A DNA stretch of 64,000 bases from Pseudobutyrivibrio sp. OR37 (GTDB lineage: Bacteria > Bacillota > Clostridia > Lachnospirales > Lachnospiraceae): assembly GCF_900113655.1 (NCBI RefSeq), contig NZ_FOQF01000020.1, forward strand, positions 1-64,000. The letters run 5' to 3'. Positions 47,721-61,099 of this stretch are shown piece by piece. The position numbers and the translations under genes were made by a program. The stretch's first letter is position 1, and each line of letters starts with the position of its first letter. The notes beneath the pieces are model-generated. The model saw nothing but the letters and a program-made list of their open reading frames with translations. It was not told the DNA's origin and did not search any database.

Positions 47721-48593
47721 CTAATTTTCAGCCTTCTTAAGCTCTGCTAAATATGAAACAGCGGAAAGTGCTGCTACATTTCCTTCACCTGCTGCCTTGA
47801 TGTACTGATAAGGTGCACCAGTAATATCACCACAGGCAAACAAGCCCTTAATATTGGTAGCCATCTGTCTATCAACAGCTATGTGATTACCATCCATTGT
47901 AAGTCCTGGAACAAGCTGTGATGGAGCTATCTGCTCTCTTAGGATAAATATTCCATCAGCTGTGTATGTCTCACCATCTGTTGCAAGATAAGCTTTACCA
48001 TCTGTGTATGCAATGGAAGCTGGCTTCACGCCTGTTGTTACTTCTATATTACCTGAAAGACTTCCTGCGTATTCGTACTGAGGTAGGTAGTAAACCTTTT
48101 CAGCACGCTCTGCTAAAAACTCTGCCTCTTCCTCATCATTAGCACTGTAAGCAATGATGATAGCTGTCTTTCCCTTATAGAGTGCTGCATCACAGGTAGC
48201 GCAGTAGCTAACTCCTCTGCCTAAGAACTCCATCTCACCTGGGAATGGCTTCATAGTGGTCATACCTGCTGCTACGATAACTGAGCTGGCTTCGTAATCA
48301 CCACCGTGGCACTGAATAGCGAAGTATTTACCCATTGAGTAAACTGCGTTTACCTTATCTTCTGTAATTTCAACGCCCATTGATGCGGCATGGTCTAAAA
48401 ATGCTTTAGCCATCTCATCACCTGCTACATTAGGAAGACCTAAGTAGTTTTGAATGGTGTGCGCCTTTGAAACCTTATCCGATGAGCCCTTCTGACCTAA
48501 CAATAATACTGTCTTATTTCTAACTTTTGCGGTAATGGCTGCCTCCAAGCCGGCTGGGCCAGTACCAATAATTGCAATATCAAATCTTTCCAT
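47721..48593 (-). CDS. Thioredoxin reductase-like flavoprotein lacking NADPH motifs
   Basis: A 290-residue flavoprotein of the thioredoxin reductase family. The FAD motif is GTGPAGLEAA (10-19), the redox pair is CATC (Cys131/Cys134), and the C-terminal FAD motif is GLFACGDITGAPYQYIKAAG. In the central domain the usual NADPH glycine motif GGGxSA is replaced by IIAYSANDEEEAEF, and the phosphate-binding HRRxxxR by LPQYEYAG. This pattern fits ferredoxin-dependent flavin thioredoxin reductases known from clostridia. It is the first gene of a redox operon with thioredoxin. Confidence 0.85.
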   Translation of the reverse strand: MERFDIAIIGTGPAGLEAAITAKVRNKTVLLLGQKGSSDKVSKAHTIQNYLGLPNVAGDEMAKAFLDHAASMGVEITEDKVNAVYSMGKYFAIQCHGGDYEASSVIVAAGMTTMKPFPGEMEFLGRGVSYCATCDAALYKGKTAIIIAYSANDEEEAEFLAERAEKVYYLPQYEYAGSLSGNIEVTTGVKPASIAYTDGKAYLATDGETYTADGIFILREQIAPSQLVPGLTMDGNHIAVDRQMATNIKGLFACGDITGAPYQYIKAAGEGNVAALSAVSYLAELKKAEN

Positions 48594-48634
48594 TTTATTT
48601 TATACCTCCTTGATAAATCCCCAGGAAGCCTATT

Positions 48635-48693
48635 AGATTTTGTACAATCTTTTAGGTTGATTTAATTGTACTCAATCTAATTGCCTTTGTCAA
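48635..48693 (-). promoter_or_regulatory. Promoter and candidate OhrR/MarR operators of the thioredoxin operon
   Basis: TTGACA (48688-48693 complement) and TACAAT (48665-48670 complement) are 17 nt apart. A near-palindrome AGATTTTGTACAATCT (48635-48650) lies in the leader, and the related TTGTACTCAATCT (48666-48678) overlaps the -10 box. Both share TTGTAC..AATCT, so they may be bound by the regulator encoded in the operon. Confidence 0.6.
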
Positions 48694-48716
48694 CACAATT
48701 TTTTATAAAAAAAATA

Positions 48717-48745
48717 AGGCCCTAGGATAAATATCCTAAAGCCCT
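48717..48745 (-). terminator. Terminator after surface protein A
   Basis: Inverted repeat around GGATA...TATCC with GGCCC/GGGCT outer pairs, followed by a long U-run on the minus strand. Confidence 0.75.
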
Positions 48746-48758
48746 ATATTACGCTAAA

Positions 48759-50969
48759 CTATTTATTTCTCTTTTTAGCAATTACAACGATAATGAAAGC
48801 AATAGCTAATGCAGCTACCGCAAAAATAGCAATCCATGAAGATAAGCTTAATACATTTTCCTGTATTGCAAGTGGAGCCTCTTCATCATTGATTGTTGTT
48901 GTTTCTTTTGAATCAATAGCTGTATTGCCCTTTGACTCTTCTTCAGTCTCTACAGCTTCTTCCTCTTCTTCAGCTTCTGTAGCCTCTGATGTAGAAGCCT
49001 CTGATGTAGAAGTAACTGTTGCCTTTGCTGGTGCAACCTTAGCGTTAGCTACTGGAGTAGCCTGTGGAGCTGCAAGTAAGATATCTGTAGCTGTAACAAG
49101 CTCTGCTGGAACTGTAGCTGCGTTTGCTACTACGTTTACAGTGTGATTGCTTGTAGGCTGTGAAGGTACAACTAATACTGGTGTGTTGGCTGGTGTGTTG
49201 GCTGGCTTGTCAGCGCCTGTGTTACCAGGTGTAACCTCTGGCTGAACCTTCTTGATAAATAACTTTACAATATCAAAGGTCTTAGGTGTAGCAACCTGCT
49301 GTGGTACGTACTTTTCAACTACCTTACCAGTGATGTAAGGCTTTGACCCCACATAGCCTTCAACACCAATCATACCCATAATTCTGATTGTATTCTTGAC
49401 GATTAAAGGTAAATCAATATTGTAGCCATTGTAGCTGATTCCTGATGGAATATAGTAGCTATGGCCCTTTGAATCTGTGCAAGTACCAAATGCAGTATTC
49501 CATGCCTCTACTGCTATAGATGCACAGTTGTTGTGCATTACATTGTATTTGTCCTTACCTCTTGTTCCAAAAACACCAAGTACAGCTTCTGTCTCGCCCA
49601 TTGTGATGTCATGCTCAATCATCATGTTAGGAGCCTGATCATAACCAACCTTCTGGTTGTAAAGCTCCTGATTAAAGCAAACACCACCTGGTGTCTTACT
49701 GTTGTAAACTGCTTCAAATAAAGGATATGCCTTTGCGCCAAGGATTTTAAGAACTTCAACTAAATGCTGACTAACGTAAGCATAGTCAATCTTCTCTCCT
49801 GTAGCTGCTTCGTAAAGCTTCTGTACAGCCTCAATTTCCTCTGGACCATAAATCTGCTTAGCGAGCTCATAATAATCTGCAACAAGATCTGATACATAAT
49901 TTACTGTGTACTGACCAATAGTAACATAATCGCCACGGTTAAGTGTAACAGAAGCAGGTGTATTTTCCTTATGGTAAACATCGCCCTCCGCTTCTGTATG
50001 AGGCATAAACATTTCGTTTGTAGCTTCTGTACGTTCTGTCTCATTTGCCTCAGTCACTTCGTCAACTGTACTTCTCCATGAAACTATTTCAGCTGCTTTA
50101 TAATCACCCTCAGCAACAGCCTTGGCTGCATCCTGAAGCTGTTCCTTGTAAGCATCATTTGTTACATAATACTTGTAGATGGAATCAATGCTAAGTGTAA
50201 GATTATCAACGTAGCTGGTGTAAACAATACCAACGTGACCATCTACAGGATTGAATGATGATTCTCTGTGACGAGCAACAAGTCTGATAGAACCAACTAC
50301 ACCACCGTTGATACCATAGAGCATTCTGTCCTCTTCAGCTTCATCAAAATCCATGATGCCATCATTGTCAGAATCTGCAAGTAATGGATTTGAAATAAGT
50401 ACTGCATATTCCTTGCCATCGATGACCTGGATTTTAACCTCCTCGCCATTGAGAAGACCATCAGCATCTAAATCGTTGCTAGCCTGAACCTCAAGATATG
50501 TCTTATCACCGAAGGCTTTTTTGCCATCCTCAGTAAGAATCTCTCCGTCACAAAGGAGCTTTGTCATCAGGTCTGAGATACCATCCTCGTTGAAATCCTC
50601 GCCATCCTTTGGCTCAAGCATTTCAAGCTCATCAAAGTTGATTTCTTCTGCTTTTTCTTCCTCTTCATTAGAAATATTCTCTTCTGTAGTTTTATCTGTT
50701 GTGTCATTCTCTTCAGCCCTAACTACCACACCTGTTTCTACTGCTTCTTCATTAATAACAGGCTCCTCAAAAGAAATTTCTGTCTCTTCACCGTCAACTA
50801 CTTCATCAGTAGCTTCTTCAACTGATTCTTCAGCTACTTCTTCAACTGCATTTACAGTTTCTGTTGCATGAAGCTCATCGTTATCAGCTAATACTGATAA
50901 AGGTGAAATTGCTTGAAAACCTAGTACTCCAGCAAGTACCAATGCTGCAAATTTGTAATGTTGTTTCAT
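48759..50969 (-). CDS. Surface protein A: calcium-loop repeats plus putative papain-like domain
   Basis: A 736-residue exported protein. Signal peptide 1-28; acidic low-complexity stretch 30-118. Three thrombospondin-3/EF-like loops follow (~125-136 DFNEDGISDLMT, ~166-177, ~199-210 DSDNDGIMDFDE). The central domain (~215-530) has conserved GHVGIVYTSYVDNL (His245), LNRGDYVTIGQY, PGGVCFN (Cys431) and HNNCASIAVEAWNTAFG (Cys482), an order that recalls permuted papain/DUF4105-like cysteine hydrolases. A Pro/Thr/Ala linker, the motif INDEEAPLAI and a C-terminal membrane helix with basic tail (AKKRNK) complete it. Enzymatic activity is inference. It is a paralogue of the next gene upstream. Confidence 0.8.
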   Translation of the reverse strand: MKQHYKFAALVLAGVLGFQAISPLSVLADNDELHATETVNAVEEVAEESVEEATDEVVDGEETEISFEEPVINEEAVETGVVVRAEENDTTDKTTEENISNEEEEKAEEINFDELEMLEPKDGEDFNEDGISDLMTKLLCDGEILTEDGKKAFGDKTYLEVQASNDLDADGLLNGEEVKIQVIDGKEYAVLISNPLLADSDNDGIMDFDEAEEDRMLYGINGGVVGSIRLVARHRESSFNPVDGHVGIVYTSYVDNLTLSIDSIYKYYVTNDAYKEQLQDAAKAVAEGDYKAAEIVSWRSTVDEVTEANETERTEATNEMFMPHTEAEGDVYHKENTPASVTLNRGDYVTIGQYTVNYVSDLVADYYELAKQIYGPEEIEAVQKLYEAATGEKIDYAYVSQHLVEVLKILGAKAYPLFEAVYNSKTPGGVCFNQELYNQKVGYDQAPNMMIEHDITMGETEAVLGVFGTRGKDKYNVMHNNCASIAVEAWNTAFGTCTDSKGHSYYIPSGISYNGYNIDLPLIVKNTIRIMGMIGVEGYVGSKPYITGKVVEKYVPQQVATPKTFDIVKLFIKKVQPEVTPGNTGADKPANTPANTPVLVVPSQPTSNHTVNVVANAATVPAELVTATDILLAAPQATPVANAKVAPAKATVTSTSEASTSEATEAEEEEEAVETEEESKGNTAIDSKETTTINDEEAPLAIQENVLSLSSWIAIFAVAALAIAFIIVVIAKKRNK

Positions 50970-51005
50970 AAAAAAATATCCTCCCTGAAACCGAAAAACA
51001 GGAAC

Positions 51006-51059
51006 AGTATACCATATAATTTCTTATATGGAAACTCTTTTTTATCCTGTTAGTTTCCA
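51006..51059 (-). promoter_or_regulatory. Promoter of surface protein A
   Basis: Minus strand: -10 TATACT within TATATGGTATACT and an upstream TGGAAACT (51052-51059). The two are spaced exactly as in the promoter of surface protein B. An inverted copy of TGGAAACT (51028-51035) covers the -35 position, which is otherwise poor. Confidence 0.55.
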
Positions 51060-51113
51060 AGAGGATATTTTTGTTGTATATGCTATATTTATTAAATTTA
51101 GCGTATAAATAGG

Positions 51114-53246
51114 CTATTTAGCCTTTTTTCTTAAAGCTACAGCGATAACGCAAGCTATGCCTACTGCTACAACTGCCCCAATCACAGGCCATGGGAAATC
51201 AGCCATTAAACTATTTCCAATTGCAAGAGGTGCATCCTCATCACTTATTACTGTAGTTTCTTTTGTACTATCTTTTGTACTATCTTTTGAACTATCTTTT
51301 GTATTATCTGCCACATCATTTGTTGGCTCAATTTCTACATTTTCTTCATCTTCTGCTTCAACTGATTCTTCAACAGCTGGTGCTGTAGTCTTTGAAGTAG
51401 TTACAGCAGTCTTCTTTTCCTGCTTTGTAGTATTTAGTGCTGCAGTAGCTGGTGGAGCTGTAAGCTGAAGTTCTGTTGCAGTTACTACTGCAACAGGTCC
51501 TGGCTGGGCAGCATTTTGAGCAGGAGTGCTAACAGAAGTGTTGTTTCCATTATTTGTAGGTGCTGTAGGACCTACTACTGGAGCTGGTGTTGGCTCAGCT
51601 GGTGTAGGTTCAACTGGCTGAATCTTCTCCTTGATGATAGCTCCAATCATTTGAAGCTTTGTAAAGGTAGTTGGTGTAGCTCCAGTTGATTTTTCGTATT
51701 TATCTAAAGCCTTACCTGTAACATATTTTCTAGGTCCTACGTAACCCTTTACGCCCATAAGTCCCATGTTACGGATAGAATTCTTTACCATAACTGGAAG
51801 GTCTGCGCGATAGTCTAAATATTTGATACCAGAATTTGCATAGTACTGAGTCTTCACAACATTTCCATTATCATCTGTTGTAAATCCAAATACTGTGTTC
51901 CATGCTTCGGTTGTAACTGTAGTACAGTTATGTGGCATGAACTGATATTCCTTAACACTTTCAGCACCATAATAATCTAACAGCTTTCTTGTCTGGTCGA
52001 AAGTGATGTCACATTCAACAATTTCATTTGGCCCCTGGTCATATTCTAATTTTTGATTATATAATTCTCTATTAATGCAAACACCACCTGGAGTAGTAGC
52101 ATTATAAACCTTATTTAGAAGCTCTGGAAGCTTTGGAAGAACAACTCCTGCCACCTCTGGCAAATGAGCCTTAACATATTCCATATCAGGATTTGAGCCT
52201 GTTGCTGCAGCATATAATTCCATAAGCTTATTAACAACTTCCTCTGAATAGATGCCATTAACAATATCGTAGTAAATCTGCTGTGTCTTAGCATCTTCCA
52301 TTGAATAGTGGCCAATAGATACATAATCACCTCTATTAAGGATAACTACTGCTGGCGAATGCGTGCCATGATTATCATCCCTAATGTACATATCCTTAGC
52401 TGCCTGTGCGCGCTGTTCTTTATTAGCCTTATTTACTTCATCTACAGTGCTTCTCCATGATGTGATTTCAGCACCCTCAGCATCAGTTTCAGCTGCCTTT
52501 GCAGCATCCTGAAGCTTTTTACTGTAAGCTTCGTTTGTAACGTAATATTCGTAAATATCATCTACATCAATCTTAAGATTATCCACATAGCTGGTGTATA
52601 CAATGTAAACATGGCCATGTGTTGGATTCTTGGTTGATTCATCATGACGAGCCACCAATCTAACTGAACCAACAACTCCTCCGTTGATTCCATAGACCAT
52701 GCGGTCTTCTTGCTTTTCGTCAATATCGTTGTAGCCATCATTATCTGAATCTACTTTTGTAGGATCTGATAAAAGTACTGCGTACTTATCGTCCTTGATA
52801 ATAATTTCTTCACCATTCTTGAGGCCATCTGAATCAAAATCGTCTGAGCTTTGAACCTCCAAATAGGTAGCATTTCCAAATATCTTTTTGCCATCCTCGG
52901 TAAGAACGTCTCCATCGCAAAGGCGTTTTGTCATTAAATCAGAAATACCATCCTTATTGAAATCTTCATCAGCCTTTGGATCAATTAGCTCGTATTTGTC
53001 TAAATCGATTTCATTTTGATTGTTTTCCTCTTCAGACTTGGTTGTTTCTTCTTTCTTTGAAGTCTCGTCTTGTGTTGTGTCTGATTCTGTTTTTGTGTCG
53101 TTTTCGCTAGTAGTAGTTTCTGTTACTTCTGAAGCTTCTGTCACTTCAGTAACTTCATCATCAGCCAATACTGTTATTGGTGAAACTGCCTGAAAAACTA
53201 TGGCACCCGCTAGAATCATTGCAACAAATTTGCAATTCTTCTTCAT
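51114..53246 (-). CDS. Surface protein B: paralogue of surface protein A
   Basis: A 710-residue exported protein with the same order as its neighbour. Signal peptide 1-28, acidic Ser/Thr stretch 30-88, three calcium-type loops (~95-106, ~136-147, ~166-177), central domain with GHVYIVYTSYVDNL (His212), LNRGDYVSIGHY, PGGVCIN (Cys390) and PHNCTTVTTEAWNTVFG (Cys441). A Pro linker and four 4-residue KDST-type repeats follow (DNA repeat 51261-51308), then ISDEDAPLAI, a transmembrane helix and the tail RKKAK. His, both Cys, and the Trp-Asn after the second Cys are kept in both paralogues. No LPXTG is present. Confidence 0.8.
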   Translation of the reverse strand: MKKNCKFVAMILAGAIVFQAVSPITVLADDEVTEVTEASEVTETTTSENDTKTESDTTQDETSKKEETTKSEEENNQNEIDLDKYELIDPKADEDFNKDGISDLMTKRLCDGDVLTEDGKKIFGNATYLEVQSSDDFDSDGLKNGEEIIIKDDKYAVLLSDPTKVDSDNDGYNDIDEKQEDRMVYGINGGVVGSVRLVARHDESTKNPTHGHVYIVYTSYVDNLKIDVDDIYEYYVTNEAYSKKLQDAAKAAETDAEGAEITSWRSTVDEVNKANKEQRAQAAKDMYIRDDNHGTHSPAVVILNRGDYVSIGHYSMEDAKTQQIYYDIVNGIYSEEVVNKLMELYAAATGSNPDMEYVKAHLPEVAGVVLPKLPELLNKVYNATTPGGVCINRELYNQKLEYDQGPNEIVECDITFDQTRKLLDYYGAESVKEYQFMPHNCTTVTTEAWNTVFGFTTDDNGNVVKTQYYANSGIKYLDYRADLPVMVKNSIRNMGLMGVKGYVGPRKYVTGKALDKYEKSTGATPTTFTKLQMIGAIIKEKIQPVEPTPAEPTPAPVVGPTAPTNNGNNTSVSTPAQNAAQPGPVAVVTATELQLTAPPATAALNTTKQEKKTAVTTSKTTAPAVEESVEAEDEENVEIEPTNDVADNTKDSSKDSTKDSTKETTVISDEDAPLAIGNSLMADFPWPVIGAVVAVGIACVIAVALRKKAK
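51261..51308. repeat. Four tandem 12-bp repeats inside surface protein B
   Basis: Unit TTTTGTACTATC, four copies with two substitutions, in frame, encoding KDS(S/T)-type tetrapeptides in the wall-spanning linker. Copy number could vary between strains by slippage. Confidence 0.85.
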
Positions 53247-53282
53247 AAAAATATCCTCCCATAAAAATAAAAACCGTGGATT

Positions 53283-53336
53283 ATTATACCATATAGAAAA
53301 TATGCGGGATACTAAAACTTACGACACGAGTTTCCA
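53283..53336 (-). promoter_or_regulatory. Promoter of surface protein B
   Basis: Minus strand: -10 TATAAT within TATATGGTATAAT, and TGGAAACT at 53329-53336. The ATACCATATA and AGTTTCCA blocks are 43 nt apart here and upstream of surface protein A. The -35 is not recognisable, suggesting an activator. Confidence 0.55.
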
Positions 53337-53364
53337 TTATTGAGTAAGAATACACAGGGCATAA

Positions 53365-53392
53365 AAAACCAAGCTCCGAAAAGCTTGGTTTT
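53365..53392 (-). terminator. Terminator after the short flagellin gene
   Basis: Perfect 11-bp stem AAAACCAAGCT/AGCTTGGTTTT with a 6-nt loop; U-run on the minus strand. Confidence 0.88.
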
Positions 53393-53408
53393 AATGAGTT
53401 TATTAATT

Positions 53409-54224
53409 TTATGCCTCAAACATCTTGTTTACAAGATTTGCTTCATTATCCATTTGTTTTTTTAGCGCCATGTTCTGAGCCTGATTAACAACCTGGCTAG
53501 TCTTTCTTCTGGTAATTGCATCTGCAAAATCTGCATCCTCCTTACGAGACTGAGCTGCTGTAAGATTTTCTGCTGTGTTACCATTTACATTATAGGCAGC
53601 CTCAAGACCATTAGTTTCAGCTCCAATCTTGCTTCGCATAGAAGAAAGCTTTGAATAAGTAGAATCTAGGGCATCTGTGGAAATCTTGTCTGGATTTCCT
53701 GAAATATCAAAGTTCTCTAACTCGGACATTGCGGCTTTTGCATCAGCCTCTGCAATTGTAGAGCTTGAATTGCCTGTATAAATATTGATGTCGCCAGTGC
53801 TTCCATCCAAAAGCTTCTTTTCATTATATTGAGCCTGGTTGATAGTCTGATTAATTGTGGCAATGGATTGCTTATTAGCCTCCTGAAGGATAGCTCTGTC
53901 GCTGTCTGAATACAGACCGTTCATTGCACGAACTGTGTTCTGCTGAACATCTCCAAGGGAATCCGAGATATTAGCAAGTGCACCATCGGCAATGTTTGCC
54001 GCATCGATTCCATAAGATATATTCTTGCTGCCCTGATTTAAGCTGTTAACCTCTTTTTCAATCTGCTTTGAAATAGCAAGTGCAACTGCATCATCAGCTG
54101 CGGTATTTACCTTTTTGCCTGATGAAAGCTCCCTTGCACTTTTCTTCTGGTGAGCCTCAGTGGCCTTCATGTGATTAATAGTGTTCTTATACTGTGATGT
54201 ATTTAGGTTAGATTGAATATTCAT
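53409..54224 (-). CDS. Short flagellin-like protein
   Basis: A 271-residue flagellin with N-terminal D0/D1 (MNIQSNLNTSQYKNTINHMK ... LSSGKKVNTAADDAVALAIS) and C-terminal D1/D0 (QSRKEDADFADAITRRKTSQ ... LVNKMFEA). Only a short central region is present, so it lacks the exposed D2/D3 domains. It ends MFEA rather than the usual LLxx. Start 54224 follows GAGGTGTG. It is distinct from the long flagellin at 62764. It may be a minor filament component. Confidence 0.88.
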   Translation of the reverse strand: MNIQSNLNTSQYKNTINHMKATEAHQKKSARELSSGKKVNTAADDAVALAISKQIEKEVNSLNQGSKNISYGIDAANIADGALANISDSLGDVQQNTVRAMNGLYSDSDRAILQEANKQSIATINQTINQAQYNEKKLLDGSTGDINIYTGNSSSTIAEADAKAAMSELENFDISGNPDKISTDALDSTYSKLSSMRSKIGAETNGLEAAYNVNGNTAENLTAAQSRKEDADFADAITRRKTSQVVNQAQNMALKKQMDNEANLVNKMFEA

Positions 54225-54324
54225 AACACACACCTCAATCTTTCGTTATACATGTTTTAACATTTTCCGATTCTTAACACTATTATAACACCGTGCCATT
54301 ATATTGTCTGTGAAAAATCTGTTA

Positions 54325-55383
54325 CTAATCCTCAGTATCGCCGTGGACGTTACCAAACTTTTCTAAATTTGTAGTCTGTCTTTTTATTTCTGCATTGTAG
54401 CGCTTTTCAACAGAATCCCAATAATTTTCAAGGGCTTTATCCCCTCTTCTATCTGGAAGCTGCATATCCTTTGAAAGAATCTCTCCAAAGTATTTTGAAA
54501 GCTTTTCGGCACCAGCAAGATTAAGATGTAAGCCACCGTCGTAGGTGTCCTTTGTCCAATCTAATTCCATTTCATCCTGGGCCTCAAGGAAATTAATATA
54601 AGTAAGATTGTTTTCCTTTGCATAATCTACCATCTGCTTGTCCCACTCTTCATACCAATATGGATAAAGTGTTGGAGCCTTTACAAGCACAAGCTGAACA
54701 TCATTGTCCTTGCAAAGCTTTGTGAGCTTGTCCAGATAGTAATAGGCATTGTCGCCGAATTGATAATCCGCAAGAGGTCTACCCTCAGGAACATCTGTGG
54801 CTTCCTTGACATCTACACGCATGTAGTAGCCGTTGAAGGAAACCTTGTCTCTGTGAAGTAAGTATTTAAAATCGTCTGAATTTAAATCGCTCCATCTGCT
54901 GTGGTAACGCAATATTGGGAACAGATACTCAATGAAATGCTCATCCTCCATCATGGATGCTTTGATGGAACCTACCTTACTTTCTGACCATTTCATGCCA
55001 TCGATGGTCATGCGATTGTAGGCCTCGTTCTGTGGCTCGTTGTATTTCATTGATAGCACGTTGAAAACTATCATGTCAGGATGCTCTCTTTTAATAGTCT
55101 CCTCTGCCAGATAGTAGGACTGCCAGATAAGCTGTTGAGCGCTGCCACGTATATACGAATTGATGCCATAATTTTCCCACAGGTAAACGGGTGATATGTT
55201 TTCATAAAGCTCGCAGTCGCCAATGAAAACCACATCATGGTCTGTTGGGTCGTCGTAGTATTCACCTATCATTGCGCCTTCTAGGATGCCTGTCATGTAT
55301 TTAGGCTCTAGGAGTTTGGTGGTGAAGAAGATGCCGGTGATGGATATGGTGAGAATTAATATAATTGAAATAAATTTTTTCAT
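54325..55383 (-). CDS. DltD-like SGNH-fold membrane-anchored protein
   Basis: A 352-residue protein with an N-terminal signal anchor (MKKFISIILILTISITGIFF) and an extracytoplasmic SGNH/alginate-acetylation-like domain. The first block is VVFIGDCELYENISP, with Cys in place of the usual Ser, and the C-terminal block GGLHLNLAGAEKL supplies the Asp/His-type motif. By position it corresponds to DltD, acting with the MBOAT protein to pass an acyl group to a surface polymer. The ribosome site GAGGG before ATG 55383 is the end of the palindromic repeat at 55389. Confidence 0.75.
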   Translation of the reverse strand: MKKFISIILILTISITGIFFTTKLLEPKYMTGILEGAMIGEYYDDPTDHDVVFIGDCELYENISPVYLWENYGINSYIRGSAQQLIWQSYYLAEETIKREHPDMIVFNVLSMKYNEPQNEAYNRMTIDGMKWSESKVGSIKASMMEDEHFIEYLFPILRYHSRWSDLNSDDFKYLLHRDKVSFNGYYMRVDVKEATDVPEGRPLADYQFGDNAYYYLDKLTKLCKDNDVQLVLVKAPTLYPYWYEEWDKQMVDYAKENNLTYINFLEAQDEMELDWTKDTYDGGLHLNLAGAEKLSKYFGEILSKDMQLPDRRGDKALENYWDSVEKRYNAEIKRQTTNLEKFGNVHGDTED

Positions 55384-55388
55384 GTATG

Positions 55389-55433
55389 CCCTCATCCGCC
55401 CCTTCGGGGCACCTTCCCCCAGAGGGGGAAGGC
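55389..55433 (-). repeat. Palindromic intergenic repeat, copy 4
   Basis: Hairpins GCCCC-TTCG-GGGGC and CCTTCCCCC/GGGGGAAGG, end CCTCATCCG. It fills the MBOAT-DltD junction, 4 nt after the MBOAT stop, and its end GATGAGGG gives the ribosome site of the next gene. Confidence 0.88.
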
Positions 55434-55437
55434 ATTA

Positions 55438-57030
55438 TTAAAATTGATTATATATGAACTGGCTGGCCGAATATCCGATGCCGTAGGCGCCGAAGATTAG
55501 GGTGGCCATAAATAATCCGTACCAGATGATAAAACGTACTGGGGCGGCGCAGGTTGCGATTTTGCCACGGACGCTTCCACTTCGGCCAATTAAGCTTACT
55601 GTGATAAGAATAAGCATTCCTACAAATACAACAGCATAGTCAAAGCCTGTAATGCCCATTCCTGTAAAGGCTGCTGGTGTAAGCTGAGCAAAGCTTGAAT
55701 CTGCAAAGATGCTTCCAAACATTTTGAAGGTAAGTGGTACATCTCTGTAGCAGTCAAACATACGAAGTGATGACATGATAAGGACTGTTCTGATTACCTG
55801 GAACAATCTCCAGCCGAAGGTGCCATCTACATGAACCTTGCTGTGGAACCATCTGTAGAATGGCTCTAGCTCTTGGGAAATCATGATGACTACAAAGTTG
55901 CCAAGTCCCCATACGATAAAGTTCCAGCTGGCTCCATGCCAGATACCTGTAGTAAACCAAACTATAAAGCTGGATAGGTAAACTGGTACACGCTTGCCAA
56001 GATTATTTCCAAGGCGTGCTCTACTCTTCTTTGAAAGCTTCATCATAAACTGGCTGGCAGATATAGGATAGAAAATGTAATCTGTAAACCATGTTCCCAT
56101 GGTAATGTGCCATCTATTCCAGTATTCCTTGATGTTCTTTGAGAAGTATGGGCGAATAAAGTTTTCTGTAACCTTAATTCCCATTGTCTCTGCCACACCG
56201 ATAGTAATATCAATACCACCAGTAAAATCTGCATAAAGCTCTAAGGCATAGAACATTGCGCCTGCAAAGGCGTAGAAGCCATTATAGGTATCTGGATCTG
56301 CAATGATTGCCTGAACAGCCACAAGTATTCTATCTGCAATAACAAGCTTTTTGAAAAATCCCCAAAGGATTCGTTCTAAGCCAAAGCTTACAGTTCTCCA
56401 ATCGAATTTGTGCTCCTCATAAAGAGTCTGGCTCAAATCAGCGTAACGGCTGATAGGACCCTGCACCAGCTGTGGGAAGAATGAAACAAAAAGTGCAAAC
56501 TTGAACAGATTATCCTGAGCCTTGAACTTGCCATTGAATACATCGATAAGGTAGCCCATAGACTGGAAGGTGTAGAAGGAAATACCCATTGGGATAATCA
56601 AATCCACAAATGAGATTCCATCTGGCCTTCCAAAGCTTGCCATAATGCCGTTGATATTTGCGATGGTGAAATTTGTGTATTTTGTAACCGCAAGAATACC
56701 TAAATTCAAAAGAAGGCAGGCGAGGAAAATCTTCTTTTCAGCTGCATGCTCCTTAGCCTTTAGAGCTTTTCTTTCTTCCTTTTCATATTCCTTTTTATGC
56801 TCCTTGAACCATGCATCAAAGCTTTCCTTTTTATCGGAAATCTTTTTGGCGGCAAAAAAAGTAGTCACTGTAGTGACCATAATAAAAATCAAATATCTTG
56901 GGTCACACATAAAATAAAATGCGTAACTTGCAAGAAGCAGGAAGGACCACTGGGCCCTTCCTGGCAACAAATAATACATTATAAATACTACTAATAAAAA
57001 TAATAAAAATTCGTAGCTTGTAAATAACAT
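55438..57030 (-). CDS. MBOAT-family acyltransferase (DltB/AlgI-like)
   Basis: A 530-residue membrane protein with 11-12 transmembrane helices and the MBOAT signature: Asn/His region NRWHITMGTWFTDYIFYPIS and catalytic His in TGIWHGASWNFIVWG. It begins MLFTSYEFLLFLLVVFIMYY, typical for AlgI-like members. It transfers an acyl or aminoacyl group across the membrane, here probably from the carrier protein encoded 5 nt upstream. Confidence 0.9.
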   Translation of the reverse strand: MLFTSYEFLLFLLVVFIMYYLLPGRAQWSFLLLASYAFYFMCDPRYLIFIMVTTVTTFFAAKKISDKKESFDAWFKEHKKEYEKEERKALKAKEHAAEKKIFLACLLLNLGILAVTKYTNFTIANINGIMASFGRPDGISFVDLIIPMGISFYTFQSMGYLIDVFNGKFKAQDNLFKFALFVSFFPQLVQGPISRYADLSQTLYEEHKFDWRTVSFGLERILWGFFKKLVIADRILVAVQAIIADPDTYNGFYAFAGAMFYALELYADFTGGIDITIGVAETMGIKVTENFIRPYFSKNIKEYWNRWHITMGTWFTDYIFYPISASQFMMKLSKKSRARLGNNLGKRVPVYLSSFIVWFTTGIWHGASWNFIVWGLGNFVVIMISQELEPFYRWFHSKVHVDGTFGWRLFQVIRTVLIMSSLRMFDCYRDVPLTFKMFGSIFADSSFAQLTPAAFTGMGITGFDYAVVFVGMLILITVSLIGRSGSVRGKIATCAAPVRFIIWYGLFMATLIFGAYGIGYSASQFIYNQF

Positions 57031-59808: not shown

Positions 59809-59855
59809 ACCTCATCCACCGCTAAAGCGGTCCCCCTTCCCCTCAAGGGGAAGGC
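59809..59855 (-). repeat. Palindromic intergenic repeat, copy 7
   Basis: Hairpins CCGCT-AAA-GCGG and CCTTCCCC/GGGGAAGG, end CCTCATCC. It overlaps the last codons and the stop of the upstream gene (59843) and ends in GATGAGGTG, which is the ribosome site of the racemase gene. Confidence 0.85.
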
Positions 59856-61099
59856 ATAAAGTAAGTATATATTTCTCTATCGTAATTGTGAGAACGATAA
59901 TGAGCATTGGAATATTCCATCAGCTCCTCATCTGTAAGATAAAATCCCTTGAATGACTTGTCTGTACGAGGTGTGGTGTCGAAATGTCGCCAGCCCTCGC
60001 CGCAATCAATTACATTCCAGAAATGATGGCGGGTGGCAGTTGGGATGATTTCGATATCCTCATTCTTAATTCCTGCTCTGGTGAGAAGCTCCTTGCTTAC
60101 TGCAAAATAATTATAGCAGTCACCATGGCGATTCTTCAGACCATCATAGGCCCCCTTCAGCCAATCGCCTCTATCTTCGCTCTCACTGTAGCCAATATTT
60201 CCCTTTACCCACACATATATCGCATGAGCCTTGTCATAATCAGACATATCAGGCTTTATGATTTGGGCTAGAACCTCGTCTGCAAGTGCATCTACTTCAT
60301 CAGGTGTATATTCTGCTTTGATTACAGTGACAGTTCCTTCCTTCAAATCCGTATTTCCCATGGAATCTGTAGCTGTGTATTCAATAGGATATTCTCCTGG
60401 CACATCAAGATTCACGTGGCTGCTATCAACCTGTAGCTGAATATCACTATCCACATTATCAGAAACTGTAATTCCCTGTTTGTAACTGACAGCCTGGCCT
60501 GTGTAAACAATCTTGTCAAGCTGGCCCTCTATCACAGGTGGGATAATATCATATTCCTCCACAAGATGAAGGACTGTGTCCTTTGCGGTGCGATTACCTG
60601 ATGAATCCTCTGCCACAATGTTGATAGGAATATCTCCATAGTTATCAAAGCTGATTCCTTCGCCAAAATAAATCTTAACATTACCTGATGCATCATTGAC
60701 TGATTCAACAAAATCCTCTGCCCTGGGAACTTCCTCTCTAGTGCGGGTAAGTTCCTTCACAGTGAGCTCTGGCGCTATGGAATCCACCACCTCAAGTGTG
60801 CAATCGTAGGTGTAAATACCTGATTTAATTTTGACATCGTAGCTTCCGGCAATATCTGTAGTGTATGTGCTGCCACTGACAAACTCAGCAGGAATATTAG
60901 GCTTTTTTAAAAAGTCCTTAGCCTCCACCTGGCCGCCCAGTTCTACCTGGCATTTTGTGTAAACTCTGTTTGAATAATCATAATAAAAGTAGGCCCCCAC
61001 TCCAGCGCAAACTACCACAATTGTAGCTGCTATTGTAACGAAAAGCCTACTGTGTTTTTTCCTTTTTCTCTTTCTTCTGCGTCTGACATCATTTTCCAT
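59843..61099 (-). CDS. Membrane-anchored transglutaminase-like protein with Ig-like domains
   Basis: A 418-residue protein: a very basic cytosolic N-terminus (ENDVRRRRKRKRKKH), one transmembrane helix (~19-40), two or three DUF5011/Ig-like domains (~45-265, with PELTVKELTRT and GITVSDNVDSDI), and a transglutaminase-like domain (~270-415). The triad is Cys328 (HGDCYNY), His359 (HHFWN) and Asp374 (HFDTTP). Such proteins act as extracellular peptidases or crosslinkers. Its last residues and stop codon are provided by the palindromic repeat at 59809. Confidence 0.85.
   Translation of the reverse strand: MENDVRRRRKRKRKKHSRLFVTIAATIVVVCAGVGAYFYYDYSNRVYTKCQVELGGQVEAKDFLKKPNIPAEFVSGSTYTTDIAGSYDVKIKSGIYTYDCTLEVVDSIAPELTVKELTRTREEVPRAEDFVESVNDASGNVKIYFGEGISFDNYGDIPINIVAEDSSGNRTAKDTVLHLVEEYDIIPPVIEGQLDKIVYTGQAVSYKQGITVSDNVDSDIQLQVDSSHVNLDVPGEYPIEYTATDSMGNTDLKEGTVTVIKAEYTPDEVDALADEVLAQIIKPDMSDYDKAHAIYVWVKGNIGYSESEDRGDWLKGAYDGLKNRHGDCYNYFAVSKELLTRAGIKNEDIEIIPTATRHHFWNVIDCGEGWRHFDTTPRTDKSFKGFYLTDEELMEYSNAHYRSHNYDREIYTYFMPSP

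What the first reader, a model, noticed from the sequence alone, without database searches (positions are those of the whole stretch)
48759..53246. Tandem paralogous surface proteins with calcium loops and an undescribed His/Cys domain
Two adjacent 700+ residue proteins share signal peptide, acidic stretch, three DxDxDG-type loops, and a central domain of ~300 residues in which GHV.IVYTSYVDNL, LNRGDYV.IG, PGGVC.N.ELYNQK and H-N-C-(A/T)-(S/T)..(T/V)EAWNT.FG are strictly kept while the flanks differ. One invariant His followed much later by one invariant Cys, the latter in an NC(T/A)(T/S) context, recalls permuted papain-like (DUF4105/LRAT-type) hydrolases. The combination could be an exported amidase or acyltransferase working at the cell wall.
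Basis: partly seen in the sequence, partly recalled or inferred. Interest (0 to 1): 0.75.

Follow-up and report, generated by a model that had tools for sequence, protein, structure and literature searches.

The report
Fast-swapping surface cysteine-enzyme gene pair
Two neighbouring genes of a gut bacterium encode surface proteins with an unlabelled domain that is probably a cysteine enzyme distantly related to lipid- and lipoprotein-modifying enzymes, and relatives of it are mounted in many ways on the outside of gut bacteria, mostly of ruminants.

Summary
Two adjacent minus-strand genes (A 48759-50969, 736 aa; B 51114-53246, 710 aa; 44% identical) encode exported, C-terminally anchored proteins with a three-loop TSP3-like stalk and a ~320-residue domain without a Pfam or NCBIfam match above cut-off. 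Relatives lie in Lachnospiraceae, Oscillospiraceae/Ruminococcus and, by MAG titles, Atopobiaceae and Chloroflexota. There, 43 of 46 loci carry two copies, with tails such as dockerin (17 of 40), SLH (6) or sortase (2). His, Glu and Cys are nearly invariant, in this order; the one second copy without the Cys also lacks the Glu. The Cys half aligns with two DUF4105/Lnb_N-related sets (scores 26-30; 0 of 360 shuffled controls reach the real score), better than the sets align with each other (21.7). The His half gave nothing significant and no fold could be predicted: a permuted NlpC/P60-type cysteine enzyme is likely, not proved; substrate unknown. The site is hypervariable: neighbouring genes 95-99% identical between species can enclose domain genes only 48-49% identical, or none, or a chemoreceptor-like gene. 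New variant of a known kind.

The parts
48759..50969 (-). gene A, 736 aa exported surface protein with the His-Glu-Cys domain
   Evidence: no family above cut-off
51114..53246 (-). gene B, 710 aa tandem paralogue of A
   Evidence: no family above cut-off
53160..53246 (-). B signal peptide (aa 1-29, read by eye)
   Evidence: sequence
50886..50969 (-). A signal peptide (aa 1-28, read by eye)
   Evidence: sequence
52671..52994 (-). B TSP3-like calcium stalk, loops at aa 95, 136 and 166 (by eye)
   Evidence: similar stalks in other Lachnospiraceae surface proteins
50295..50624 (-). A TSP3-like calcium stalk, loops at aa 125, 166, 199
51717..52670 (-). B His-Glu-Cys domain (about aa 193-510)
49335..50294 (-). 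A His-Glu-Cys domain (about aa 226-545)
52611..52613 (-). B His212, candidate catalytic His
52065..52067 (-). B Glu394 (N-R-E), candidate third catalytic residue
51924..51926 (-). B Cys441, candidate nucleophile
50235..50237 (-). A His245
49665..49667 (-). A Glu435 (N-Q-E)
49524..49526 (-). A Cys482
51117..51266 (-). B C-terminal anchor: D-E-D-A-P-L-A, hydrophobic helix, basic tail (by eye)
   Evidence: 7 sortase matches in the genome
48762..48908 (-). A C-terminal anchor: D-E-E-A-P-L-A, hydrophobic helix, basic tail (by eye)
53364..53391 (-). stem-loop and T-run after flagellin, read by eye; a TATAAT-like box and GGGAGG follow before B
   Evidence: not listed by the consensus scan
48714..48747 (-). 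terminator-like stem-loop after A
53409..54233 (-). flagellin gene, upstream flank of the variable site
47721..48593 (-). thioredoxin-reductase-like gene, downstream flank of the variable site

Best explanation
A and B are exported, membrane- or wall-anchored surface proteins that hold, on a calcium-binding stalk, a cysteine enzyme of the permuted NlpC/P60 kind, nearest to DUF4105 (the family of Lnb). Inferred mechanism: the His (H245/H212), oriented by the Glu (E435/E394), activates the Cys (C482/C441) at the start of the last core helix; the Cys attacks an acyl or amide carbonyl, an acyl-cysteine forms, and it is resolved by water or passed to an acceptor. Most likely substrates are acylated molecules outside the cell (phospholipid, lipoprotein, or acylated surface or plant polymer). 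Shown here: export and anchor signals by eye, residue order and invariance, similarity of the Cys half to DUF4105, allele-like change of the locus. Inferred: fold, calcium binding, catalysis, substrate.
For: His, Glu and Cys are present in 99 of 99, 99 of 100 and 100 of 101 copies that cover the column, among 104 hmmsearch stretches; in the second copies, which did not bring in the loci, 44/44, 43/44 and 43/44, the one exception (L064) losing Cys and Glu together. The order His-Glu-Cys is that of permuted enzymes (BcPPNE His49, Glu64, Cys154; passages of PMC3142127). Two sets of plasmid-borne proteobacterial proteins, F1 (12 rows) and F2 (9 rows), align Cys-on-Cys at 26.4-29.6 with the three profiles used for controls; 0 of 360 column-shuffled targets reach the real score, shuffled maximum 22.4, reversed 11.9-17.2. 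F2 is clear Lnb_N (3 of 9 rows scanned: 116-156 bits). F1 is divergent: its annotated DUF4105 member L216 scores 24.0 bits and its member L205 14.3, below second copy L069 of our domain (16.7), over the same model part. F1 and F2 score only 21.7 with each other. The A2 profile also found L111, an RHS-repeat protein whose C-terminal part passes the Lnb_N cut-off by 0.2 bit. Surface context: 17 dockerin, 6 SLH, 2 sortase, and choline-binding, ChW and CWB2 tails among 40 relatives.
Against: No model of the fold could be made. Lnb_N scores in family members stay below its cut-off where bits were seen (best 16.7 against 22.2). Unrelated Pfam models reach similar or better E-values in some of 66 members (PqqD 5.1e-5 in 3, WapI 0.0072 in 6, ORF6N 0.0041 in 3); their bits are not in that listing, and 24 members scanned singly did not include the PqqD ones, so I cannot say whether PqqD passes its cut-off there. 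hhalign probabilities against F1 and F2 are only 2-13% and significance rests on the controls. The His halves scored 14.7 and 16.6; the top alignment pairs His with His in one of two cases. Global alignment paired none of His, Glu, Cys. No solved relative. The aromatic at -7 is Phe in 45 of 45 first copies, not the Tyr expected if it is the NlpC/P60 tyrosine.
Confidence: 0.6

Rival explanations
1. Same permuted papain-like fold, but a peptidase or cell-wall amidase: the Cys cuts peptide or peptidoglycan cross-links of neighbours, of the bacterium itself, or of plant wall protein.
For: Canonical NlpC/P60 enzymes cleave amide bonds in cell walls (PMC3142127 passages); the closest architectural precedent, RflaF_05439 of Ruminococcus flavefaciens (two NlpC/P60 modules plus X-dockerin), is a proposed cysteine peptidase (PMC3573020). 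BcPPNE and YiiX are proposed amidases for a lipid-amino-acid bond, which lies between this rival and the main reading.
Against: Permuted members are described as acting on lipids or acyl groups (PMC12994826 section 11); RflaF_05439 has the canonical order Cys109-His215-Gln230, its authors detected no protease activity, and its structure 4EYZ is not among the PDB hits of our profiles.
Confidence: 0.25
2. Not an enzyme in A and B: an adhesin or binding domain whose His, Glu and Cys are structural, the gene varying because it is a target of phages, protists or rivals.
For: Surface display, C-type lectin and VWA partners in relatives, allele-like divergence at a fixed site.
Against: Near invariance of His, Glu and Cys down to 17-20% identity, with joint loss of Glu and Cys in the one exception, is typical of an active site; with one family-wide Cys in the domain a conserved disulphide is unlikely.
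Confidence: 0.12
3. Unrelated fold: the similarity to DUF4105 is a local helix-Cys resemblance (aromatic at -7, N/S before Cys, small residues after it). This overlaps with the other rivals.
For: Only the Cys half is significant; Pfam evidence is weak and shared with unrelated models; the first-copy plus Pseudobutyrivibrio set scores 22.2 with F1 and 22.5 with the NlpC control.
Against: 0 of 360 shuffles reach the real scores; all five sub-alignments score higher with F2 (25.7-29.6) and with L111 (31.1-42.5) than with the sortase, C92 and NlpC controls (9.0-22.5); His precedes Cys in both.
Confidence: 0.15

Closest known systems
DUF4105 / Lnb_N (Pfam PF13387), including Lnb, the lipoprotein N-acyltransferase of Bacteroides
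   Same: Order His then Cys; aromatic at -7 and N (here N or S) before the Cys; Cys half aligned well above controls; an invariant Glu between His and Cys in 9 of 9 F2 rows.
   Different: Below the Pfam cut-off; long inserts between His and Glu; extracellular stalk, lectin, VWA, dockerin or SLH partners; two copies per protein in most relatives outside Pseudobutyrivibrio. Lnb itself was not compared.
YaeF/YiiX-like permuted NlpC/P60 (Peptidase_C92, PF05708)
   Same: Triad order His-Glu-Cys; the best local alignment places Cys on Cys.
   Different: No significant profile score (13.0).
RflaF_05439 (PDB 4EYZ), tandem NlpC/P60 with X-dockerin in Ruminococcus flavefaciens
   Same: Rumen surface protein with two papain-like modules and dockerin; Cys replaced by Ser in one repeat of strain 17 (PMC3573020), as in the second copy of L064 here.
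   Different: Canonical order Cys-His-Gln; not found by our profiles.
Tox-Act1 phospholipase (permuted NlpC/P60, sister of DUF4105; PMC12994826)
   Same: His ... Cys order (His43, Cys151) and superfamily.
   Different: Secreted antibacterial effector; its sequence was not compared here.

Membership tests
Pfam Lnb_N / DUF4105 (PF13387) | score at or above the curated cut-off (22.2 bits) | tested here: not met
   A and B no hit at E<=10; 2 of 66 members at E<=0.1 (bits not shown); best bits seen 16.7
DUF4105-like superfamily | Cys-helix half similar beyond chance with Cys on Cys | tested here: met
   0 of 360 shuffles reach the real score
DUF4105-like superfamily | His strand similar beyond chance with His on His | tested here: inconclusive
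   (N halves, 14.7 and 16.6; His pairs in one of two); uninformative
permuted NlpC/P60 | His, polar residue, Cys in this order and conserved | tested here: met
permuted NlpC/P60 | papain-like core with the three residues together in space | not testable with these tools
   Structure prediction switched off
permuted NlpC/P60 | conserved tyrosine of the active site | tested here: inconclusive
   position -7 is Tyr in 40 of 44 second copies but Phe in 45 of 45 first copies; equivalence to the known Tyr is not established
YiiX / Peptidase_C92 | significant profile similarity | tested here: not met
   score 13.0 (9-row C92 set)
LRAT | significant profile similarity | not tested
   no LRAT set was built; no LRAT hit among the Pfam families listed
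canonical NlpC/P60 (RflaF_05439 type) | Cys before His | tested here: not met
   invariant His precedes the invariant Cys in the alignments
LPxTG sortase substrates | LPxTG-like pentapeptide before the C-terminal helix | tested here: not met
   A and B have DEEAPLA / DEDAPLA; whether a sortase cuts there is not known

The most novel reading that the evidence does not exclude
An undescribed family of extracellular permuted cysteine acyl-enzymes has spread among rumen bacteria of several phyla, usually as a fused pair mounted on cellulosomes, S-layers or cell walls, and in Pseudobutyrivibrio it has become a hypervariable, allele-swapped surface enzyme whose variation is driven by encounters with phages, protists or rivals.
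Probability: 0.3. Interest if true: 0.72.

Novelty: new variant of a known kind. Interest (0 to 1): 0.55.

Why it matters
Of more than 220 dockerin proteins of R. flavefaciens only about half are carbohydrate-active (PMC3573020 section 13); a cysteine acyl-enzyme family there would mean chemistry other than sugar hydrolysis (lipid, lipoprotein or ester processing) at the fibre surface. Characterised relatives are Lnb and its sister Tox-Act1; display on stalks and scaffolds would be a new use. The variable site between flagellin and thioredoxin reductase, with empty, one-gene, two-gene and chemoreceptor-like states, is a natural experiment on what drives surface variation in a rumen genus.

Tried and rejected
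Family look-up: A and B have nothing above cut-off in Pfam or NCBIfam. The scans of 66 members list families without bits: in Pfam the only one under E 0.001 is PqqD (3 members, 5.1e-5), in NCBIfam and PHROGs none is (best 0.0025 and 0.0085). PADLOC was not searched. PDB profile searches gave no relative (27, 69; best 8ikr at E 0.021 over the middle of the domain, taken as chance). No relative in viral contigs (46, pattern scan) or, for one first-copy query, in plasmids. PF13387 was found in 0 of 6 and 0 of 219 Bacillota genomes. Profile tests that failed: YiiX/C92 and NlpC (48, 106), global hhalign, His halves. The A/B tree is mostly unresolved (4 of 14 inner branches well supported), so the origin of A (old paralogue or acquired allele) is left open. 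Rows dropped: 10 stretches; L217, fetched, was left out of F1 (its reading frame is broken).

Literature: searches listed no paper on this domain; supplements could not be read, so S3 Table of PMC12994826, which lists DUF4105 homologues including a Firmicutes-rich branch, may already hold some of these proteins. Seen: PMC12994826 (passages; section 11), PMC10318531 and PMC3142127 (passages), PMC3573020 (abstract and outline, passages, section 13); the rest only as search listings.

Full report
WHAT IS THERE. Genes A (48759-50969) and B (51114-53246) lie head to tail on the minus strand between a flagellin gene (53409-54233) and a thioredoxin-reductase-like gene (47721-48593). They share 44% identity over their length. 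By eye each has a signal peptide, an acidic stretch, a stalk with three DxDxDG-type loops, the domain, a Pro/Thr-rich linker, and a C-terminal hydrophobic helix with basic tail preceded by D-E-(E/D)-A-P-L-A. The consensus scan lists a terminator-like stem-loop after A and a TTGACA/TACAAT box before the reductase gene; a stem-loop after flagellin and a TATAAT-like box before B are seen by eye. This suggests, but does not show, a transcription unit B-A of its own. No further copy of the domain was found in the genome; it has seven sortase matches. The genus is Pseudobutyrivibrio, inferred from same-genus contigs whose lengths and ranges match titled records.

NO NAMED FAMILY. Neither protein has a hit above cut-off in Pfam or NCBIfam. 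Scans of 66 domain members against Pfam, NCBIfam and PHROGs show only scattered weak matches; the one Pfam family below E 0.001 is PqqD in 3 members, and the listing gives no bits. Of the members scanned singly (24 of 66), none has a family above cut-off. No solved structure is related by sequence.

RELATIVES. In the genus 14 of 29 genomes have the domain (the tool's tally of 15 counts one genome that matches only near the C-terminus). In 299 genomes of the family one search gave 14 with any match, 9 of them only over the stalk, N-terminus or anchor; outside the genus the domain was seen in G248 (L005) and G131 (L014), with a short remnant in G265 (76-89 aa frame). The L014 domain added G052 (L134, L138). 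Class and phylum samples gave 2 of 391 and 2 of 398 genomes, all from the genus except one, the L111 genome. A scan of one genome per species of GTDB gave 58 loci. It used peptide patterns around GHV.. and NRE.., so its sample is biased to those motifs. Twelve are Pseudobutyrivibrio or Butyrivibrio; 46 are others: Lachnospiraceae, Ruminococcus, Oscillospiraceae, Clostridia, one Erysipelotrichaceae, three Atopobiaceae contigs, one Anaerolineaceae, one Chloroflexi, by record title. Sixteen of 58 titles name a ruminant gut site; 19 more carry RUG/RUI identifiers, which I recall as rumen genomes. MAG contigs may be misbinned; the two Chloroflexota records have different isolate series and the same architecture, sortase tail included.

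ARCHITECTURE. Of the 46 loci outside Pseudobutyrivibrio/Butyrivibrio, 43 hold two copies of the domain (42, leaving out L104, plus L093 by eye); L074 and L079 run off the contig and L104 is a 132-residue fragment. Of 40 complete tails scanned, 17 match Dockerin_1, 6 SLH, 5 Big_2, 2 sortase, 2 Choline_bind_3, 1 ChW, 1 CWB2. L087 begins with a GDSL lipase domain. L014 has VWA and TSP3 before a 200-residue version of the domain; L134 and L138 have TSP3 and C-type lectin.

RESIDUES. In 24 diverse domains the invariant columns are two Gly, His, Glu (of N-R-E), Cys, Trp, Asn. The rows found by script had been picked with a pattern that requires the Cys, so this alignment alone is not an unbiased test of it. 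Over 104 hmmsearch stretches, counting those that cover the column, His is 99 of 99, Glu 99 of 100, Cys 100 of 101, Trp and Asn 101 of 101; here each ORF had been chosen because some copy in it fits a Cys-Trp-Asn pattern (L093, which did not fit, was added by hand). The second copies were used neither in the scan nor necessarily in that choice: His 44/44, Glu 43/44, Cys 43/44, and the one without Cys (L064, Cys to Ser) is the one with Glu to Asp. First and second copies were told apart by script rules. A and B keep all three residues.

LINK TO DUF4105. Direct Pfam evidence is weak: Lnb_N reaches 16.7 bits (cut-off 22.2) in second copy L069 and 11.7 in L061, over model positions 103-153, where the Cys lies. 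So I built yardsticks. PF13387 was sought in 7 large plasmid records and gave one weak hit, L205 (E 0.056); its homologues in plasmids (44 records) include L216, annotated DUF4105; 12 rows make set F1. A neighbour annotated DUF4105 (L218) gave set F2, 9 rows, 7 of them so annotated. Pfam confirms F2 (L218, L219, L221: 116, 139, 156 bits) and shows F1 to be divergent (L216 24.0 bits, L205 14.3); in F1, as in our domain, Lnb_N sees only the Cys half. The domain profiles align Cys-on-Cys with both sets: A2, A4 and second-copy profiles score 26.4-29.6, while 60 column shuffles of each target per profile (360 in all) have means 12.7-14.6 and maximum 22.4, and reversed targets 11.9-17.2. Sortase, C92 and NlpC controls score 12-19 for these three profiles. 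Less good: the first-copy plus Pseudobutyrivibrio set scores 22.2 with F1, no better than with NlpC (22.5), and 27.2 with F2; the three-row minimal set scores 20.8 and 25.7 against 19.8 for sortase; no shuffles were run for these two. hhalign probabilities are low throughout (2-13%). F1 and F2 score 21.7 with each other, so the domain is at least as near to each as they are to one another. L111, found by the A2 profile at E 8e-4 in one of 398 genomes (about 0.3 expected by chance over the whole search), scores 74% with A2 and passes Lnb_N by 0.2 bit: a bridge, but a single sequence. The His halves are not significant and global alignment fails.

MECHANISM. From papers: permuted NlpC/P60 enzymes have His, polar residue, Cys in this order with a hydrophobic pocket and act on lipids or acyl groups (PMC3142127 passages; PMC12994826 section 11); DUF4105 contains the lipoprotein N-acyltransferase Lnb (same section). 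Inferred: the domain forms an acyl-cysteine and hydrolyses or transfers an acyl or amide group outside the cell. I put the cysteine-enzyme reading at about 0.7-0.75 and acyl/lipid over peptidase chemistry at about 2:1.

A VARIABLE SITE. The trxR gene is found in 29 of 29 genomes of the genus. Upstream of it: the domain gene in 13 (two genes only in the window's genome); flagellin adjacent with a gap of 166-385 bp in 9, leaving no room for the gene; a chemoreceptor-like (MCP) gene by eye in 5; a gap of 815 bp without an ORF of 80 aa in 1; ABC-transporter-like genes by eye in 1. Flagellin is seen upstream of the domain gene in 9 of these 13, and once (L196) 3.3 kb away in the other direction; in 3 it was not seen in the stretch fetched. 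G311 has its copy on a 3.2-kb contig while its trxR site lacks it. Among six close species four flanking proteins are 83-100% identical, while the domain protein (B for the window) is 45-65% in 13 of 15 pairs and 97-98% in 2. For L188-L189 flagellin is 95%, trxR 98% and the domain protein 49%; for L188-L197 95%, 99% and 48%. DNA similarity falls within or just after the signal-peptide codons (about codons 14-34) and returns within the last codons or just past the gene. This looks like allele replacement of the gene body; B goes with L188 (65%), A with none (44-52%). The domain tree is too poorly resolved to say more.

NEAREST PRECEDENT. RflaF_05439 of Ruminococcus flavefaciens has two NlpC/P60 modules and an X-dockerin; its order is Cys109-His215-Gln230 and strain 17 has Ser for Cys in one repeat (PMC3573020). 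Ours has the opposite order and our profiles do not find it; the parallel in niche and layout is striking. The searches behind 'no description found' are listed under Tried and rejected; the library lacks most subscription journals.

VERDICT. Real, unlabelled in the libraries searched, probably an extracellular DUF4105-like cysteine enzyme; fold and activity unproved. New variant of a known kind, interest 0.55.

Noticed in passing
window 47721-54233: The site between flagellin and trxR is empty, or holds one domain gene, two, or a chemoreceptor-like gene, in 29 species of the genus; neighbours are conserved while the domain gene is allele-like divergent.
   Followed up: partly
window 54325-57030: MBOAT O-acyltransferase gene with a GDSL-like partner next to flagellin, 92-100% and 90-93% identical to five close species; an acylation pair beside the putative acyl-enzyme genes.
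   Followed up: partly
L100, L103: Proteins of Anaerolineaceae/Chloroflexi MAGs carry an LPxTG-like motif followed by a sortase domain (PF04203) in the same chain, after two copies of the domain.
   Followed up: partly
window 48762-48908, 51117-51266; L046, L048: Shared C-terminal signal, roughly (D/E)(D/E)xxPxA plus helix plus basic tail, in other large surface proteins of the genus; possibly an unusual sortase signal; seven sortase matches in the genome.
   Followed up: partly
L111 1-1815: RHS-repeat protein of an unnamed Bacillota genome with a C-terminal domain just over the Lnb_N cut-off.
   Followed up: partly
window 59843-61099: Protein with bacterial surface Ig-like domain and transglutaminase-like core, kept near the MBOAT genes in several relatives.
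   Followed up: no
L087 4456-11199: 2248-residue frame with GDSL lipase, a weak Big_2-like stretch below cut-off, two copies of the domain and dockerin-like repeats by eye.
   Followed up: partly
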